Positions 52,872 to 59,398 of a DNA stretch of 64,000 nt are shown here, in pieces. The position numbers and the translations under genes are program-made. Origin of the DNA: Marmoricola sp. OAE513 (GTDB taxonomy: Bacteria; Actinomycetota; Actinomycetes; Propionibacteriales; Nocardioidaceae); NCBI RefSeq assembly GCF_040546585.1, contig NZ_JBEPOC010000001.1:3826915-3890914 (forward strand), in the 5' to 3' direction. The notes beneath the pieces are model-generated. The model was not told the DNA's origin, did no database searches, and saw only the letters and a list, made by a program, of their open reading frames with translations. The number at the start of each line of letters is the position of its first letter. The stretch's first letter is position 1.

Positions 52872-53975
52872 ATGTCCGACCGTCTGAAGCAGCTGGCAGA
52901 GGCAGGTGTGTCGATCTGGCTCGACGACCTGTCGCGGGAACGCCTGGAGACCGGCAACCTCGCCGACCTCGTCAAGACCTCCTCCGTCGTCGGCGTGACG
53001 ACGAACCCGTCCATCTTCGCGTCCGCGCTGGCCAAGGGTGAGCGGTACGACGCGCAGGTGCGCGAGCTCGCTGCCGACGGCGCCGACGTCGAGCGCACGG
53101 TGTTCGAGCTGACCACCACCGACGTGCGCAACGCAGCCGACGTCCTGCGTGACGTGTTCGAGGCCAGCGACGGGGTCGACGGCCGCGTCTCGATCGAGGT
53201 CTCCCCCGGGTTCGCCCACGACACCGAGCAGACCGTCGCGGAGGCGGCGAAGCTCTGGGCCGCCGTGGACCGCCCGAACGTGCTCATCAAGATCCCCGGT
53301 ACGCCGGAGGGCAACCCCGCCATCACCCGCACGCTCGCGGCGGGCATCTCGGTCAACGTGACCCTCATCTTCGGCCTCGACCAGTACGCCGAGGTGATGG
53401 AGGCCTACGTCGCCGGTCTCGAGCAGGCTGCGGCCAACGGTCACGACCTCAGCACCATCCACTCGGTGGCGTCGTTCTTCGTCTCCCGGGTCGACACCGA
53501 GATCGACGCCCGGCTGGACGCAGCCGGGGCCGAACCGGTCCTCAAGGGTCGAGCCGGCATCGCCAACGCCCGACTGGCGTTCGAGGCGTTCGAGAAGTTC
53601 TTCTCCGGTGAGCGCTGGGAGGCGCTCGCTGCACAGGGCGCGCACAAGCAGCGCCCGCTCTGGGCGAGCACCGGCGTCAAGAACCCGGAGTACGACGACA
53701 CGATGTACGTCGTCGACCTGGTGGTCGAGGACACCGTGAACACGATGCCCGAGAAGACGTTGCAGGCGGTGGCCGACCACGGCGTCGTGGCCGGGGACCG
53801 GGTGCGTCCCTTCTACGCCGAGGCCCGGCAGACGCTGGAGGATCTCGCGGCCGCGGGCATCGACTACGACGACGTGATCGCGCTGCTGATCCGCGAGGGC
53901 GTGGAGAAGTTCGTGACCGCCTGGGACGAGCTGCTCGAGACGGTCGGCAAGAGCTTGGAGCAGGCGAAGGCATGA
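52872..53975 (+). CDS. tal: Transaldolase
   Basis: 367 aa class I aldolase of the long actinobacterial type. [17 protein letters not shown], the Schiff-base Lys in [12 protein letters not shown], and [11 protein letters not shown] are diagnostic. It moves three-carbon units between sedoheptulose-7-phosphate and glyceraldehyde-3-phosphate. GAAAGG precedes the ATG, 24 bases after tkt. Its stop overlaps the pgi ATG (ATGA at 53972-53975). Confidence 0.96.
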
Positions 53976-55615
53976 CGGCCTCCCGCTCGGGCGCCCCCGT
54001 CGATCCGACCACGACCACGTCCTGGTCCCGCCTGGCCGAGCTGCGGGCGGCGTTCGTCCCCGACCTGCGCAGCTGGTTCGCCGCCGACCCCGAGCGGGCG
54101 GTGCGGCTCACCGTCGAGGCAGCCGACCTGCACGTCGACCTGTCCAAGGGCCTGGTCACCGACGAGGTGCTGGCCGCCTTGCTCGCGCTCGCCGAGGAGG
54201 TCGACGTCGCCGGGCGCCGGGACGCGATGTTCCGCGGGGAGCACGTCAACGCCACCGAGGACCGGGCCGTGCTGCACACCGCCCTGAGGCTGCCCGCGGA
54301 CGCCTCGCTGGAGGTCGACGGCCACGACGTCGTGACCGAGGTGCACGAGACGCTGCAGCGCGTCTACGCGTTCGCCGACAAGATCCGCTCCGGCGCGTGG
54401 ACCGGCGTGACCGGCCGGCGCATCGAGACCGTCGTCAACATCGGCATCGGCGGCTCGGACCTCGGACCGGTGATGGCGTACGAGGCCCTCAAGCCCTACG
54501 TGCACGAGGGCCTGGAGTGCCGGTTCATCAGCAACATCGACCCGACCGACGCTGCCACAACGCTCGCCGGGCTCGACCCGGAGACGACCCTGTTCATCGT
54601 CGCCAGCAAGACCTTCGGGACCCTGGAGACGCTCACCAACGCGCGGCTGTGCCGGGCCTGGCTGCTCGATCGGCTGCCGGCCGGTGACGCCGAGGACGCC
54701 GTCAGGAAGCACTTCGTCGCGGTCAGCACGGCGCTCGACAAGGTCGCCGACTTCGGGATCGATCCGGAGAACGCCTTCGGGTTCTGGGACTGGGTCGGTG
54801 GGCGCTACTCGATCGACTCGGCGATCGGCACGTCGCTGGTCGTCGCGATCGGCCCGGAGCGCTTCGCTGAATTCCTCGGTGGGATGCACGCGATGGACGA
54901 GCACTTCCGGACCGCGCCTCCCGAGCAGAACGCTCCCCTGCTGATGGGGCTGCTCAACGTCTGGTACACCAACTTCCTCGGCGCGGCCACGCACGCGGTG
55001 CTCCCGTACGCGCAGCAGCTGCACCGGTTCCCGGCGTACCTGCAGCAGCTGACGATGGAGTCCAACGGCAAGGGCGTGCGGTGGGACGGCAGCAAGGTCG
55101 GCACCGACACCGGCGAGGTGTTCTGGGGCGAGCCCGGCACGAACGGCCAGCACGCGTTCTACCAGCTGATCCACCAGGGCACCCGGTTGATCCCGGCCGA
55201 CTTCATCGCCTTCGCCAACCCGGCGTACCCGCTCGTCGACGAGCACGACGGCGAGAGCGTCGACGTCCACGAGCTGTTCCTGGCGAACTTCTTCGCCCAG
55301 ACCCACGCCCTGGCGTTCGGCAAGAGTGCTGAGGAGCCGTACCGGAACTTCACCGGCAACCGGCCGACGACCTCGATCATGGCGCCGGACCTGACGCCGT
55401 CGGTGCTCGGTCAGCTGATCGCGCTGTACGAGCACCTGACCTTCACCCAGGGCGTTGTCTGGGGCATCGACAGCTTCGACCAGTGGGGTGTCGAGCTCGG
55501 CAAGAAGCTCGCCCTGGAGCTCGAGCCGGCGCTCGCCGGCAAGGAGGCGCCCGCCGAGGCGCAGGACCCCAGCACCAGGGCTCTGATCGCCTACTACCGG
55601 GAGAACCGGAGATGA
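53972..55615 (+). CDS. pgi: Glucose-6-phosphate isomerase
   Basis: 547 aa. [18 protein letters not shown], the phosphate loop SKTFGTLET and [15 protein letters not shown] at the C-terminus are family signatures, and [10 protein letters not shown] is present. It links fructose-6-phosphate to glucose-6-phosphate and so feeds carbon back into the oxidative branch. It overlaps both neighbours by four bases (tal and zwf). Confidence 0.97.
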
Positions 55616-57132
55616 CCGAGAACCCGCTGCGCGACCCGGCGGACCGGCGGCTCCCCCGGATCGCTGGCCCGTGCGGCATGGTCCTCTTCGGGGTCACCGG
55701 CGACCTGTCGCGCAAGAAGGTGATGCCGGCGATCTACGACCTGGCCAACCGCGGGCTGCTCCCGCCGGGGTTCAGCCTGGTCGGGTTCGCCCGGCGGGAC
55801 TGGGCCGACCAGGACTTCGCCCAGATCGTGCACGACTCGGTCCGTGAGCACGCCCGCACCGAGTTCCGCGAGGAGGTCTGGAACCAGCTCGCCGAGGGCT
55901 TCCGGTTCGTGCCCGGCGACTTCGACGACGACACCGCCTTCGCCAACCTCCGCCGGACGATCGAGGAGCTCGACGAGACCCGCGGCACCCAGGGCAACCA
56001 CGCCTTCTACCTGGCGATCCCCCCGTCGTTCTTCGGCAACGTCGCCGCCCAGCTCAAGGAGCACGGCCTGGCCGACCCGAAGGAGGGTTCCTGGCGCCGG
56101 GTGGTCGTCGAGAAGCCGTTCGGGCACGACCTGGAGAGCGCTCGCGAGCTCAACGACATCCTCGGGCAGGTCTTCGACCCGGGCTCGATCTTCCGGATCG
56201 ACCACTACCTCGGCAAGGAGACCGTCCAGAACATCCTGGCGATGCGGTTCGCGAACAACCTGTTCGAACCGATCTGGAACTCCAACTACGTCGACCACGT
56301 CCAGATCACGATGGCCGAGGACGTCGGCATCGGTGGCCGGGCCGGCTACTACGACGGCGTCGGCGCTGCCCGCGACGTGATCCAGAACCACCTGCTCCAG
56401 CTGATGGCGCTGGTCGCCATGGAGGAGCCGACGTCGTTCGACGCCGAGAGCCTGCGGATCGAGAAGCAGAAGGTGCTCAGCTCGGTCACGCTACCGCCGC
56501 GCCTGGACCTCGCCACGGCCCGGGGCCAGTACGCCGCAGGCTGGGCGGGCGGCGAGGAGGTCATCGGCTTCTGCGAGGAGGACGGCATCGGCGCTCGGTC
56601 AACCACCGAGACGTATGCCGCCGTCACCCTGCACGTGGACACCCGCCGCTGGGCCGGGGTGCCGTTCTACCTGCGTACCGGGAAGCGCCTCGGTCGTCGG
56701 GTCACCGAGGTCGCGATCGTCTTCAAGCGCGCCCCGCACCTGCCGTTCACCGAGACGGCGACCGAGGCGCTGGGCCAGAACGCCATCGTGATCCGGGTGC
56801 AGCCCGACGAGGGCATGACGATCCGGTTCGGCTCCAAGGTGCCCGCGACCGCGATGGAGATCCGTGACGTGAACATGGACTTCGCCTACGGGGGGTCGTT
56901 CACCGAGGCGTCGCCGGAGGCGTACGAGCGGCTGATCCTCGACGTCCTGCTCGGCGACCCGCCGCTGTTCCCGCGGCACGAGGAGGTCGAGCTCTCCTGG
57001 AAGATCCTCGACCCGATCCTGGCGTACTGGGCCACCCGCGGGAAGCCGGAGTCCTACGCCTCCGGCGGCTGGGGACCCGCCTCGGCGGACAAGATGCTCG
57101 CGCGTGACGGAAGGACCTGGAGGAGGCCGTGA
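55612..57132 (+). CDS. zwf: Glucose-6-phosphate dehydrogenase
   Basis: 506 aa. [11 protein letters not shown] is the NADP site, [13 protein letters not shown] the catalytic His/Lys loop, and EKPFG the substrate site. It makes 6-phosphogluconolactone and NADPH (or NADH in some actinobacteria). ATG 55612 overlaps the pgi stop; its TGA overlaps the opcA GTG (GTGA at 57129-57132). Confidence 0.97.
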
Positions 57133-58040
57133 AAGAGCTCCTGGACACCAACTCCGCGGCAATCGCCGCCGCCTTCGTCAAGGCGCGCACCAAGGCCGGC
57201 AGCCCGGCGATGGGCATGGTGATGACCCTGGTCATCGTGGTGGACGAGGACGTCGCCACCGAGGCGCTCAAGGCGGCTCGCCGAGCCTCCCGGGAGCACC
57301 CGGCCCGGGTGCTGGCCGTGATCCTCGGCGACGCCCGCGGCAAGGGTGTGGTCAACGCCCAGGTCGGCATCGGGGACGACTGGACCGGCGAGACCGCGAT
57401 GATCCGGCTCTCCGGCGCGGTGGTCAAGCATCCCGAATCGGTCGTGCTGCCGCTCCTCCTCCCGGACTCCCCGGTGGCCGTCTGGTGGCCGACCGACCCG
57501 CCCGAGGACCCGGCGGCCGATCCCCTCGGCAGCCTGGCGCAGCGCCGGATCACCGACGCGGCAGCGGCCTCCCGCAACAAGACCCGGGCGATGGCGACCC
57601 AGTGCGCGTCGTACACGAAGGGCAACACCGACCTGGCCTGGACGCGCGTGACCCCGTGGCGCGCCCTGCTGGCGGCGGCGCTGGACCAGCAACCGCTCAA
57701 GGTACGCCGGGCGTCGGTGACCGGCGAGCGGATCAGCCCGAGCGCCGACCTGCTCGCGGCCTGGCTCAGCGACCGGCTGCGCGTGCCCGTCGACCGGGTG
57801 ACCTCGAAGGGTCCTGGCATCACCGAGGTGGTGCTGGAGACCAAGGAGGGTCCGATCCGGATCGCTCGCAGCGACGGCAAGCTGGCCGTGTTCTCCTCGC
57901 CGAACCGCCCCGACCGACCGGTCGCGCTGCGCCGCCGCGAGCTGCCGGACCTGCTGGCCGAGGAGCTGCGACGGCTGGACGAGGACGTCGTCTACCAGGC
58001 GACCGCGAAGCGGATGCTGAAGCTGGCAGCCCAGAAATGA
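57129..58040 (+). CDS. opcA: Glucose-6-phosphate dehydrogenase assembly protein OpcA
   Basis: 303 aa. VAVWWPTDPPEDPAADPLG and SYTKGNTDLAWTRVTPWRALLAAALD are typical of OpcA, a subunit that activates Zwf in cyanobacteria and actinobacteria. AGGAGG five to ten bases before GTG 57129 gives a strong RBS within the zwf end. It stops at the first of three tandem 12-bp repeats, with ATGA (58037-58040) opening a mini-ORF. Confidence 0.95.
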   Translation: MKELLDTNSAAIAAAFVKARTKAGSPAMGMVMTLVIVVDEDVATEALKAARRASREHPARVLAVILGDARGKGVVNAQVGIGDDWTGETAMIRLSGAVVKHPESVVLPLLLPDSPVAVWWPTDPPEDPAADPLGSLAQRRITDAAAASRNKTRAMATQCASYTKGNTDLAWTRVTPWRALLAAALDQQPLKVRRASVTGERISPSADLLAAWLSDRLRVPVDRVTSKGPGITEVVLETKEGPIRIARSDGKLAVFSSPNRPDRPVALRRRELPDLLAEELRRLDEDVVYQATAKRMLKLAAQK

Positions 58041-58074
58041 GCCCAGAAATGAGCCCAGAAATGAACCCAGCATG
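58028..58074 (+). repeat. 12-bp tandem repeat at the opcA-pgl junction
   Basis: AGCCCAGAAATG occurs three times without change (58028-58039, 58040-58051, 58052-58063), followed by a degenerate 11-bp copy (58064-58074) whose ATG is the pgl start. Each copy carries an ATG that forms ATGA with the base after it. The copies straddle the opcA stop codon. Confidence 0.9.
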
Positions 58075-58075
58075 A
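58037..58075 (+). CDS. Twelve-codon mini-ORF bridging opcA and pgl
   Basis: ATG 58037 to TGA 58075 encodes MSPEMSPEMNPA. The start overlaps the opcA stop as ATGA, and its TGA overlaps the pgl start as ATGA (58072-58075). A ribosome ending opcA could restart here and then hand over to pgl. It has three in-frame ATGs because the repeat is four codons long. Whether it is translated is unknown; it may only be a by-product of repeat expansion. Confidence 0.35.
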   Translation: MSPEMSPEMNPA

Positions 58076-58779
58076 CCCGGGACGTCGTCGTGCTGCCCGA
58101 CCCGGACGCCGTCGCGGCCGAGGTGGCGGAACGCTTCCTGGACAGGATCCGGGCGGCGCAGGACCGCGATGAGGCCGTCGACGTGGCCCTGACCGGCGGC
58201 ACCGTCGCCCGCCTGGTGCACCGCAGGATCGCGGAGCTCGCCGACGACGGCCCGGACTGGGACCGGGTGACCTTCTGGTTCGGCGACGAGCGCTTCGTCG
58301 CGGCGTCGAGCACGGACCGCAACGCGTGCCAGGCACGCGAGGACCTGCTGGACCCGATCGCCGCCCCGCACGTGCACGAGGTGCCCAGCAGCGACGACGT
58401 GGACACGGCCGAGGAGGCGGCGTCGGCGTACTCAGCACTGCTGCGCAGCGCGGGCTCGGGCGAGTTCGACCTGGTCATGCTCGGGATGGGACCGGACGGC
58501 CACGTGGCCTCGCTGTTCCCGGGCTTTCCCGAGCTGCGCGTGGACGAGATCGCTGTCGCCGTTCACGACTCCCCCAAGCCGCCGCCCGACCGGGTCAGCC
58601 TGAGCTTCGGCGCGCTCAACCGGGCGCGCGCGGTGTGGTTCCTGGTGACGGGGTCGGAGAAGGCCGAGGCGGTGCAGCGGGCCTGGGCGTTCGAGGGCAC
58701 GGTCGAGGAGACCCCGGCGCGCGGGATCAGCGGACCGTCGGTGACGTGGTTCGTGGACGAGGCGGCGGCGGGGCGCTAG
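58072..58779 (+). CDS. pgl: 6-phosphogluconolactonase
   Basis: 235 aa DevB/SOL family. DVALTGGTVARLVHRRI, WFGDERFVAASSTDRN and MLGMGPDGHVASLFPG are the three family motifs. It hydrolyses the lactone made by Zwf. ATG 58072 is the fourth ATG of the repeat series. Its TAG shares CTAG (58776-58779) with the convergent small membrane gene. Confidence 0.96.
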   Translation: MTRDVVVLPDPDAVAAEVAERFLDRIRAAQDRDEAVDVALTGGTVARLVHRRIAELADDGPDWDRVTFWFGDERFVAASSTDRNACQAREDLLDPIAAPHVHEVPSSDDVDTAEEAASAYSALLRSAGSGEFDLVMLGMGPDGHVASLFPGFPELRVDEIAVAVHDSPKPPPDRVSLSFGALNRARAVWFLVTGSEKAEAVQRAWAFEGTVEETPARGISGPSVTWFVDEAAAGR

Positions 58780-59003
58780 AGAGCGCCGAATCCCACCGCG
58801 AGCAGCGCGGCGGATGCGAGCCCGATCGCGAGCCCGGCGGCCACGCCGAGGGCCGGCGCACGGGCGGAGCGCGACCACAGCCCCACCACCAGCAGCACCA
58901 CGACCGCAGCAGTCGTCAGCAGAGCCACGTTCTGCACCCGGGCGTCTTCACCGGAGGCGAACGCTCGCACAGCCACCCAGAACCCGATCAGCGAGCTGAC
59001 CAT
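58776..59003 (-). CDS. Small membrane protein, hypothetical
   Basis: 75 aa from ATG 59003, or 79 aa from GTG 59015. Two hydrophobic helices (about residues 1-14 and 25-43) plus a third Gly/Ala-rich one (50-75) leave little soluble part. No family recognised. It starts 35 bases after the rbpA stop on the same strand and is probably co-transcribed. The open frame extends through rbpA, but that part is a shadow. Confidence 0.6.
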   Translation of the reverse strand: MVSSLIGFWVAVRAFASGEDARVQNVALLTTAAVVVLLVVGLWSRSARAPALGVAAGLAIGLASAALLAVGFGAL

Positions 59004-59038
59004 GGCCGGAACCACGGCGTGGGCGGCTGCCTGGTTCC

Positions 59039-59398
59039 TCAGAAGACGATCTCGCCGCTCTTGCGCTTGGTGCGCAACGTCGTGAGGGCCTCTTCCAGGA
59101 TCTCCTTCGCCTCGGTGTCGGAGCGACGCTCCTTCACGTAGGCCAGATGGGTCTTGTAGGGCTCGACCTTCTTGGGCGGCGGCGGGTTCTCCGAGTCGAT
59201 GCTCGAGGGCAGGCCGCACTTGGGGCAGTCCCACGACTCCGGGACCTGGGCCTCCACCGCGAACGCGATCATCGTCCGGTGCTCCTGGGAGCAGAAGTAC
59301 GTCACGTTCTGCCGCGGCGCGGCGTCGCCGCGCTCTGCCTCGCCCATGGGGCCCGCTCCGACGCGGCTCCCCCGAATGGCGCTACCTCCGCCTGCCAC
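59039..59398 (-). CDS. rbpA: RNA polymerase-binding protein RbpA
   Basis: 119 aa. The order is an N-terminal tail (AIRGSRVGAGP), a zinc-binding core with FCSQEH and CPKCG, and a basic C-terminal helix (RRSDTEAKEILEEAL). RbpA binds RNA polymerase and principal sigma factors and stabilises the open complex; it is found only in actinobacteria. GTG 59398 has GGAG upstream. It lies 40 bases downstream of secG. Confidence 0.94.
   Translation of the reverse strand: MAGGGSAIRGSRVGAGPMGEAERGDAAPRQNVTYFCSQEHRTMIAFAVEAQVPESWDCPKCGLPSSIDSENPPPPKKVEPYKTHLAYVKERRSDTEAKEILEEALTTLRTKRKSGEIVF

What the first reader, a model, noticed from the sequence alone, without database searches (positions are those of the whole stretch)
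58028..58075. A 12-bp tandem repeat makes a mini-ORF that relays translation from opcA to pgl
Three exact AGCCCAGAAATG copies follow the end of opcA. They encode a 12-codon ORF whose ATG overlaps the opcA stop (ATGA) and whose TGA overlaps the pgl start (ATGA). The repeat is four codons long, so copy-number change would keep the relay in frame. This could set the OpcA to lactonase ratio by termination-reinitiation. I know of no described element of this form between these genes.
Basis: partly seen in the sequence, partly recalled or inferred. Interest (0 to 1): 0.7.

Follow-up and report, generated by a model that had tools for sequence, protein, structure and literature searches.

The report
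Repeat-built ribosome relay between two genes
A 12-letter DNA repeat between two sugar-metabolism genes forms a tiny reading frame that begins on one gene's stop codon and ends on the next gene's start codon, and it likely hands ribosomes across a gap that would otherwise uncouple the two genes; similar tiny frames recur at gene junctions in its relatives.

Summary
Three exact AGCCCAGAAATG copies (58028-58063) plus an 11-nt degenerate copy make a 12-codon ORF (58037-58075). Its ATG overlaps the opcA stop and its TGA overlaps the pgl start.

The repeat is lineage-specific: the 12-mer occurs only here in the genome, and 149 of 170 opcA-pgl junctions surveyed have an in-frame start on the opcA stop. 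The array therefore opened a 31-nt gap in a pair that was probably overlapping, and pgl now has no detectable Shine-Dalgarno.

The relay reading gains unexpected support from relatives. At zwf-opcA, 59 of 68 gapped junctions hold a mini-ORF of the same geometry (3-51 codons); shifting the phase by 1 or 2 nt leaves 2.9 and 6.2. Of 30 independent pairs differing in gap length, 21 differ by a multiple of 3. Relays also exceed phase controls in stretches of two genomes (13 vs 2.6/3.7; 11 vs 1.3/3.1).

Mycobacterial MIRUs already have this form, and this genome carries four copies of a MIRU-like 84-nt element. The array is a new, tandem-repeat-built variant of a known kind. Copy-number tuning is untested, and one wrong base would make it an ordinary overlap.

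The parts
57129..58040 (+). opcA, G6PD assembly protein; GTGA overlap with the zwf stop (57129-57132)
   Evidence: TIGR00534 score 206.7, below its curated cut-off 256.25; Pfam PF10128 and PF20171 above cut-off
58028..58039 (+). repeat copy 1, AGCCCAGAAATG, inside the 3' end of opcA
58040..58051 (+). repeat copy 2, exact
58052..58063 (+). repeat copy 3, exact
58064..58074 (+). degenerate fourth copy AACCCAGCATG, one base short, which puts pgl out of the mini-ORF frame
   Evidence: read directly
58037..58040 (+). ATGA: mini-ORF start overlapping the opcA stop
58037..58075 (+). relay mini-ORF, 12 codons MSPEMSPEMNPA plus TGA; in-frame ATGs at 58037, 58049 and 58061 all end on the same stop
   Evidence: translation of the mini-ORF is inferred, not shown
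58050..58064 (+). two further opcA-frame TGA stops, at 58050-58052 and 58062-58064
   Evidence: read directly
58072..58075 (+). ATGA: pgl start overlapping the mini-ORF stop
58068..58095 (+). predicted hairpin (outer stem of 9 pairs) that holds the pgl start codon
   Evidence: z-score -2.21 for 58028-58100, only -0.50 for 58060-58105, so weak evidence
58072..58779 (+). pgl, 6-phosphogluconolactonase; N-terminus MTRD shared with close relatives, no detectable Shine-Dalgarno
53972..53975 (+). ATGA overlap tal-pgi, same gene cluster
55612..55615 (+). ATGA overlap pgi-zwf, same gene cluster

Best explanation
The array is a relay mini-ORF: ribosomes that stop at opcA likely restart on its overlapping ATG or on one of two further in-frame ATGs, translate at most 12 codons, and are predicted to stop exactly on the pgl start and restart there. 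Shown by sequence: both ATGA overlaps, three ATGs in one frame with one common stop, a 31-nt gap between the opcA stop and the pgl start, and no Shine-Dalgarno match before pgl. Inferred: the pair was once a direct overlap, as in most relatives surveyed; 12-bp slippage inserted the array; one lost base in the last copy put pgl out of frame; the relay was kept because it turns one uncoupling 31-nt jump into two 4-nt overlaps. The peptide itself probably does nothing. Copy number would change the relay by four codons at a time without breaking it.
For: Likely ancestral state: of 170 distinct opcA-pgl junctions 144 have an in-frame start at RTGA and 5 at TGRTG (142 overlap when the start is chosen by alignment). 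The 12-mer is in no fetched locus outside this genome (373 loci). The pgl start at 58072 is supported: relatives P0002, P0003, P0005 and P0006 begin MTRD, and none of the 120 listed proteins begins MSPE. pgl has no anti-SD pairing (dG 0), against a median of -6.15 kcal/mol in 142 overlapping junctions, of which 6 are weaker than -2. The same geometry is favoured elsewhere: zwf-opcA relays in 59 of 68 gaps of 8-150 nt, phase controls 2.9 and 6.2; 21 of 30 independent pairs of unequal gap length differ by multiples of 3, p 4.4e-5; 13 relays in 464 kb of this genome (this one included) against 2.6 and 3.7, and 11 in 400 kb of G212 against 1.3 and 3.1. The 59 zwf-opcA mini-ORFs lack coding-type third-position GC (0.663, 0.730, 0.732 by codon position, 1047 codons), so the frame rather than codon usage is kept. 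A second relay, of 5 codons, sits at opcA-pgl in L141. Published E. coli reporters: a 38-nt gap cuts reinitiation by 80-90% in two pairs and abolishes it in a third (PMC10666635 section 6). An AUGA-coupled uORF is needed for PPE2 expression in mycobacterial lacZ reporters (PMC11260477 passages).
Against: No expression data for this organism. At opcA-pgl only 2 of 10 gaps of 8-150 nt are relays, and at pgi-zwf the 5 of 14 relays are not clearly above the phase controls of 3.0 and 1.0. Given the repeat, the right phase has about a 1 in 3 chance. The mini-ORF ATGs have weak anti-SD pairing (-3.3, -1.9, -1.9), unlike the zwf-opcA junctions (median -6.4 before the -3 position, -7.8 before opcA, 69 gapped junctions). 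Weak pairing before pgl is not special among gapped junctions: 5 of 12 are weaker than -2. The hairpin over the pgl start is not unusual on its own (z -0.50). No strain with another copy number was found. The distance data come from E. coli and Haloferax.
Confidence: 0.6

Rival explanations
1. Neutral slippage by-product. The array grew by 12-bp slippage at the end of opcA, the phase is chance, and pgl is translated by leftover direct reinitiation across 31 nt or by independent initiation.
For: The repeat is found only in this genome; the right phase has about a 1 in 3 chance; 8 of 10 opcA-pgl gaps of 8-150 nt have no relay; results at gaps under 38 nt were variable and specific to the gene pair in E. 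coli (PMC10666635 section 6).
Against: pgl has no detectable SD; a gap near this size removes most direct reinitiation in published reporters; relays of this geometry are phase-biased at zwf-opcA and in excess in two genome samples.
Confidence: 0.25
2. One-base sequence error. With one more base in the last copy, the first ATG would be in frame with pgl, giving an ordinary ATGA overlap and an MSPE-type extension of Pgl.
For: The fourth copy is exactly one base short, and direct overlap is the usual state.
Against: The genome is one contig and the Pgl protein is recorded on two contigs, though both may be one assembly; the fourth copy also differs by substitutions, as an old copy would; there is no homopolymer longer than 3 in the array.
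Confidence: 0.08
3. Stop suppression with a -1 shift. The mini-ORF frame is -1 to opcA and the pgl frame is -1 to the mini-ORF, so fusions could arise, as reported at a minor level for uPPE2-PPE2.
For: The frames are as stated; a fusion was reported for uPPE2-PPE2 (PMC11260477 passages).
Against: No canonical slippery heptamer seen at either junction (by eye); it would need two shifts to reach pgl.
Confidence: 0.04
4. The 12-residue peptide MSPEMSPEMNPA itself has a function, for example as a small protein of the gene cluster.
For: It is an intact ORF between two conserved genes.
Against: No surveyed relative has the repeat that encodes it; the comparable zwf-opcA mini-ORFs vary from 3 to 51 residues and lack coding-type third-position GC.
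Confidence: 0.03

Closest known systems
MIRU (mycobacterial interspersed repetitive unit), as described in passages of the review PMC12548453, which cites Supply et al. 1997 (that paper not seen)
   Same: A repeat at a gene junction whose internal ORF is coupled to the next gene by a 4-nt overlap; MIRU copy number varies (PMC3635867, start of abstract in the listing).
   Different: MIRUs are dispersed and appear mobile, and are much longer (length recalled). The 12-bp unit here occurs at one place only, and its length is a multiple of 3, so several ATGs share one frame and one stop.
Termination-reinitiation at ATGA or TGATG gene overlaps (PMC6728339 passages; PMC10666635 abstract and section 6)
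   Same: Each of the two hops is a 4-nt stop-start overlap, the geometry found most often in those papers.
   Different: Two hops in series through a 12-codon ORF instead of one overlap.
uPPE2-PPE2 AUGA uORF of Mycobacterium tuberculosis (PMC11260477 passages)
   Same: A short ORF delivers ribosomes to a downstream gene that lacks an SD, through an AUGA overlap.
   Different: uPPE2 is in a 5' leader under a riboswitch; here the mini-ORF sits between two genes and is itself entered from a gene stop.
Bicistronic design expression vectors (mentioned in passages of the review PMC12548453)
   Same: A short ORF used to deliver a ribosome to the next gene.
   Different: Synthetic, and started by its own strong SD (recalled).

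Membership tests
MIRU | ORF inside the repeat coupled to the flanking gene with a 4-nt overlap | tested here: met
   ATGA at 58037-58040 and at 58072-58075 (geometry only; coupling itself not tested)
MIRU | dispersed in many copies over the genome | tested here: not met
   AGCCCAGAAATG with up to 1 mismatch only three times, all in this array
MIRU | sequence similarity to the MIRU-like element of the same genome | tested here: not met
   the 84-nt element matches four places in G000 at E 1e-4 or better, none at this locus; no comparison with a mycobacterial MIRU was made
MIRU | copy number varies between strains | not testable with these tools
   no same-species relative found; closest other Pgl listed 77%
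termination-reinitiation coupled overlap | stop and start codons overlap by 4 nt or 1 nt | tested here: met
   at both ends of the mini-ORF
termination-reinitiation coupled overlap | downstream translation depends on upstream translation | not testable with these tools
   needs reporters or ribosome profiling
uORF relay of uPPE2 type | downstream gene lacks its own SD | tested here: met
   dG 0 for pgl, median -6.15 in 142 overlapping junctions of relatives
uORF relay of uPPE2 type | short ORF is in the 5' leader with its own initiation site | tested here: not met
   it lies between two genes; anti-SD pairing only -3.3 kcal/mol at the first ATG

The most novel reading that the evidence does not exclude
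Relay mini-ORFs bounded by ATGA on both sides are a general translational device of actinobacterial operons, kept in phase by selection and rebuilt again and again from whatever DNA fills a junction: drifted spacer at zwf-opcA, a MIRU-like 84-nt mobile element at tal-pgi and fliF-fliG, and at opcA-pgl a 12-bp tandem repeat. The 12-bp array is the slippage-tunable form: each copy adds four codons and one more in-frame start, so a fast copy-number change could trim the OpcA to lactonase ratio without ever breaking the coupling.
Probability: 0.35. Interest if true: 0.75.

Novelty: new variant of a known kind. Interest (0 to 1): 0.55.

Why it matters
Gap distances between operon genes are often read as coupled or uncoupled. 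If spacers are often phase-locked relay ORFs, many pairs called uncoupled are coupled, and many unannotated short ORFs have a job that needs no peptide. It gives a simple reason why tiny ORFs are translated between genes, and why repeats such as MIRUs can land in operons without harm. It is directly testable: the zwf-opcA spacers of Nocardioides and relatives hold mini-ORFs of 3 to 51 codons in one phase, a natural experiment for measuring how relay length sets the ratio of two gene products. The opcA-pgl array would add a tunable version.

Tried and rejected
Copy-number comparison between strains: not possible. No same-species relative appeared among the 120 listed Pgl proteins or the 23 other held genomes of the genus. 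Dispersed element: rejected for the 12-mer. Pgl with an MSPE extension: not supported, since close relatives start at MTRD. Strong structure at the junction: weak evidence only. Conserved peptide: rejected for the window, since no fetched relative holds the repeat.

Rows dropped or treated differently between counts. CTG-started relays at opcA-pgl (L131, L142) were not counted later, because CTG is a poor start codon. L166 is a relay at opcA-pgl (GTG or ATG start at +20 or +23) but not, where alignment chose another start and a gap under 8. L220 (tal-pgi) is a relay and not for the same kind of reason. One search searched mini-ORF starts at -3 and 0 only; one search widened this to -3..+9 and left out gaps under 8 nt and over 150 nt. 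Non-relays: 9 of 68 at zwf-opcA, 8 of 10 at opcA-pgl, 9 of 14 at pgi-zwf, 1 of 3 at tal-pgi. Phase controls there for one and two bases deleted: 2.9 and 6.2; 0.2 and 0.3; 3.0 and 1.0; 0 and 0. Four of 34 independent pairs had equal gap length and were not tested. The counts 13 and 11 include the window array, and in G212 its zwf-opcA relay and its copy of the 84-nt element. The gene calls come from a simple codon-score caller of my own and were not checked against an annotation.

Literature: the listings of seven paper searches showed no paper on a mini-ORF between opcA and pgl or between zwf and opcA. I saw titles and abstract starts of the listed rows only, and most subscription papers are not in that library.

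Full report
What is there. The window lies at the end of a single-contig 3.89-Mb genome. The nearest named records at OpcA are Nocardioides and Marmoricola, and the gene order is tkt-tal-pgi-zwf-opcA-pgl. The opcA 3' end and the spacer hold three exact copies of AGCCCAGAAATG and a fourth copy that is one base short. Each exact copy brings an ATGA, so one frame has an ATG per copy (58037, 58049, 58061), the opcA frame has a TGA per copy, and the pgl frame is open without a start codon. The frame with the ATGs ends at the TGA of the pgl ATGA. The 36-mer is beyond chance and the 12-mer is unique to this place in the genome.

What it replaced. tal-pgi, pgi-zwf and zwf-opcA in this genome are 4-nt ATGA or GTGA overlaps. 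Among 170 distinct opcA-pgl junctions from fetched loci, 144 have an in-frame start at the RTGA, 5 at TGRTG and 21 have a gap; when the start is chosen by alignment, 142 of 170 overlap. The closest relative, G012 with 90% OpcA identity, has an overlapping start at opcA-pgl and a 7-codon relay at zwf-opcA (L032). No fetched locus from another genome holds the 12-mer. The array is therefore most likely derived, and it sets the pgl start 31 nt from the opcA stop. The pgl start is supported by conservation: close relatives begin MTRD at the same place. pgl also has no anti-SD pairing: dG 0 against a median of -6.15 kcal/mol for 142 overlapping junctions. Among gapped junctions weak pairing is not rare (5 of 12).

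Why a relay. Reporter work on native pairs found that a 38-nt gap lowers reinitiation by 80-90% in two E. coli pairs and abolishes it in a third, and the abstract states that about 20 nt almost abolished coupling (PMC10666635, abstract and section 6 read). SD motifs help but are not essential in Haloferax (PMC6728339, passages). The array splits one 31-nt gap into two 4-nt overlaps.

The unexpected part. I classified the other junctions of the gene cluster. At zwf-opcA, 68 junctions have a gap of 8-150 nt, the opcA start being chosen by protein alignment and not by the relay. In 59 of these, an ORF that starts within -3 to +9 of the zwf stop ends exactly on the opcA start. Deleting one or two bases within the gap leaves 2.9 and 6.2. 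Relatedness does not explain this away: pairing the 68 leaves on a Zwf-OpcA tree gives 34 independent pairs, 30 of unequal gap length, of which 21 differ by a multiple of 3 (p 4.4e-5 against 1/3). These mini-ORFs are 3 to 51 codons long, and their interior shows no coding-type third-position GC. Many share the ends M(T)SPH and EGTPR, the latter encoded by a Shine-Dalgarno-like GAGGGGACCCCGAG just before the opcA ATG. What is kept is the frame and the two ends, which fits a ribosome relay better than a peptide. The other junctions give fewer cases: pgi-zwf 5 of 14 (phase controls 3.0 and 1.0, so not decisive), tal-pgi 2 of 3 (0 and 0), opcA-pgl 2 of 10, the window and L141 (0.2 and 0.3). In 464 kb of this genome 13 of 145 gaps of 8-150 nt are relays, this one included, against 2.6 and 3.7 in phase controls; in 400 kb of G212 it is 11 of 122 against 1.3 and 3.1 (simple gene caller of my own).

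A dispersed relay in the same genome. One relay found in G212 proved to be an 84-nt repeat. In five genomes searched it gave 25 matches (G000 4, G146 13, G330 7, G212 1, G012 none), 24 of them of 72 nt or more; the 25th, in G146, is 28 nt. In 22 of the 24 copies a 27-codon ORF (26 in L344) runs from an RTGA at the first base to the final ATGA; L342 is broken by a frame change and L337 has only a later in-frame GTG. In 23 of 24 the terminal ATGA starts an ORF of at least 103 codons with GC3 of 0.90 or more, and in the last one it starts a second copy in tandem. In 11 of 24 the first RTGA also ends an upstream open frame of over 300 codons with GC3 of 0.89 or more. In this genome one copy joins a FliF-like gene to fliG, and others precede fliE and the acetolactate synthase small subunit gene (the FliF Pfam match is just below its cut-off). 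In two relatives it sits at tal-pgi of this very gene cluster (L211 and L220, the same places as L343 and L335). It resembles the MIRUs of mycobacteria, which a 2025 review describes as inserting at start codons so that an internal ORF becomes coupled with a 4-nt overlap (PMC12548453, passages). Whether it is homologous to MIRUs was not tested.

Verdict. The relay geometry is real, resembles a tested way to deliver ribosomes (uPPE2-PPE2, PMC11260477 passages), and is phase-biased at the neighbouring junction in relatives. What is new here is a relay built by a local 12-bp in-frame tandem repeat with three nested starts. Tuning by copy number is an attractive but untested extension. The sequence of the last copy should be confirmed, because one base decides between a relay and an ordinary overlap.

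Noticed in passing
G000 C1:878692-878774, 880674-880757, 1559696-1559779, 548985-549061 (L324, L330, L327, L333): Four copies of a MIRU-like 84-nt element with a 27-codon ORF (MSERSER or VNERSER start) whose TGA overlaps the start of fliE, fliG, a GatB/YqeY-like gene (by eye) and the acetolactate synthase small subunit gene.
   Followed up: partly
G146 C11:432270-432433 (L331, L334): Two copies of the 84-nt element in tandem that share one ATGA, so two relay ORFs follow each other in series.
   Followed up: partly
L211 and L220, tal-pgi junction: The 84-nt element sits between tal and pgi of the same gene cluster in two relatives. In one search both count as relays; only L211, because another start was chosen for L220.
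   Followed up: partly
zwf-opcA junction of Nocardioidaceae, for example L184, L204, L096, L183: A mini-ORF of variable length with conserved ends MTSPH and EGTPR, and an SD-like GAGGGG just before the opcA start.
   Followed up: yes
class-level search, 296 genomes: 24 of 296 genomes match the 84-nt query at E 1e-5 or better, several only over its first 25-40 nt, so related elements may be widespread.
   Followed up: no
window 58776-59234, minus strand: An opposite-strand ORF ends in the last bases of pgl, a convergent 3' overlap.
   Followed up: no
window 57129-58040: OpcA scores 206.7 bits on TIGR00534, below its curated cut-off of 256.25, although both Pfam OpcA domains are above theirs.
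   Followed up: no
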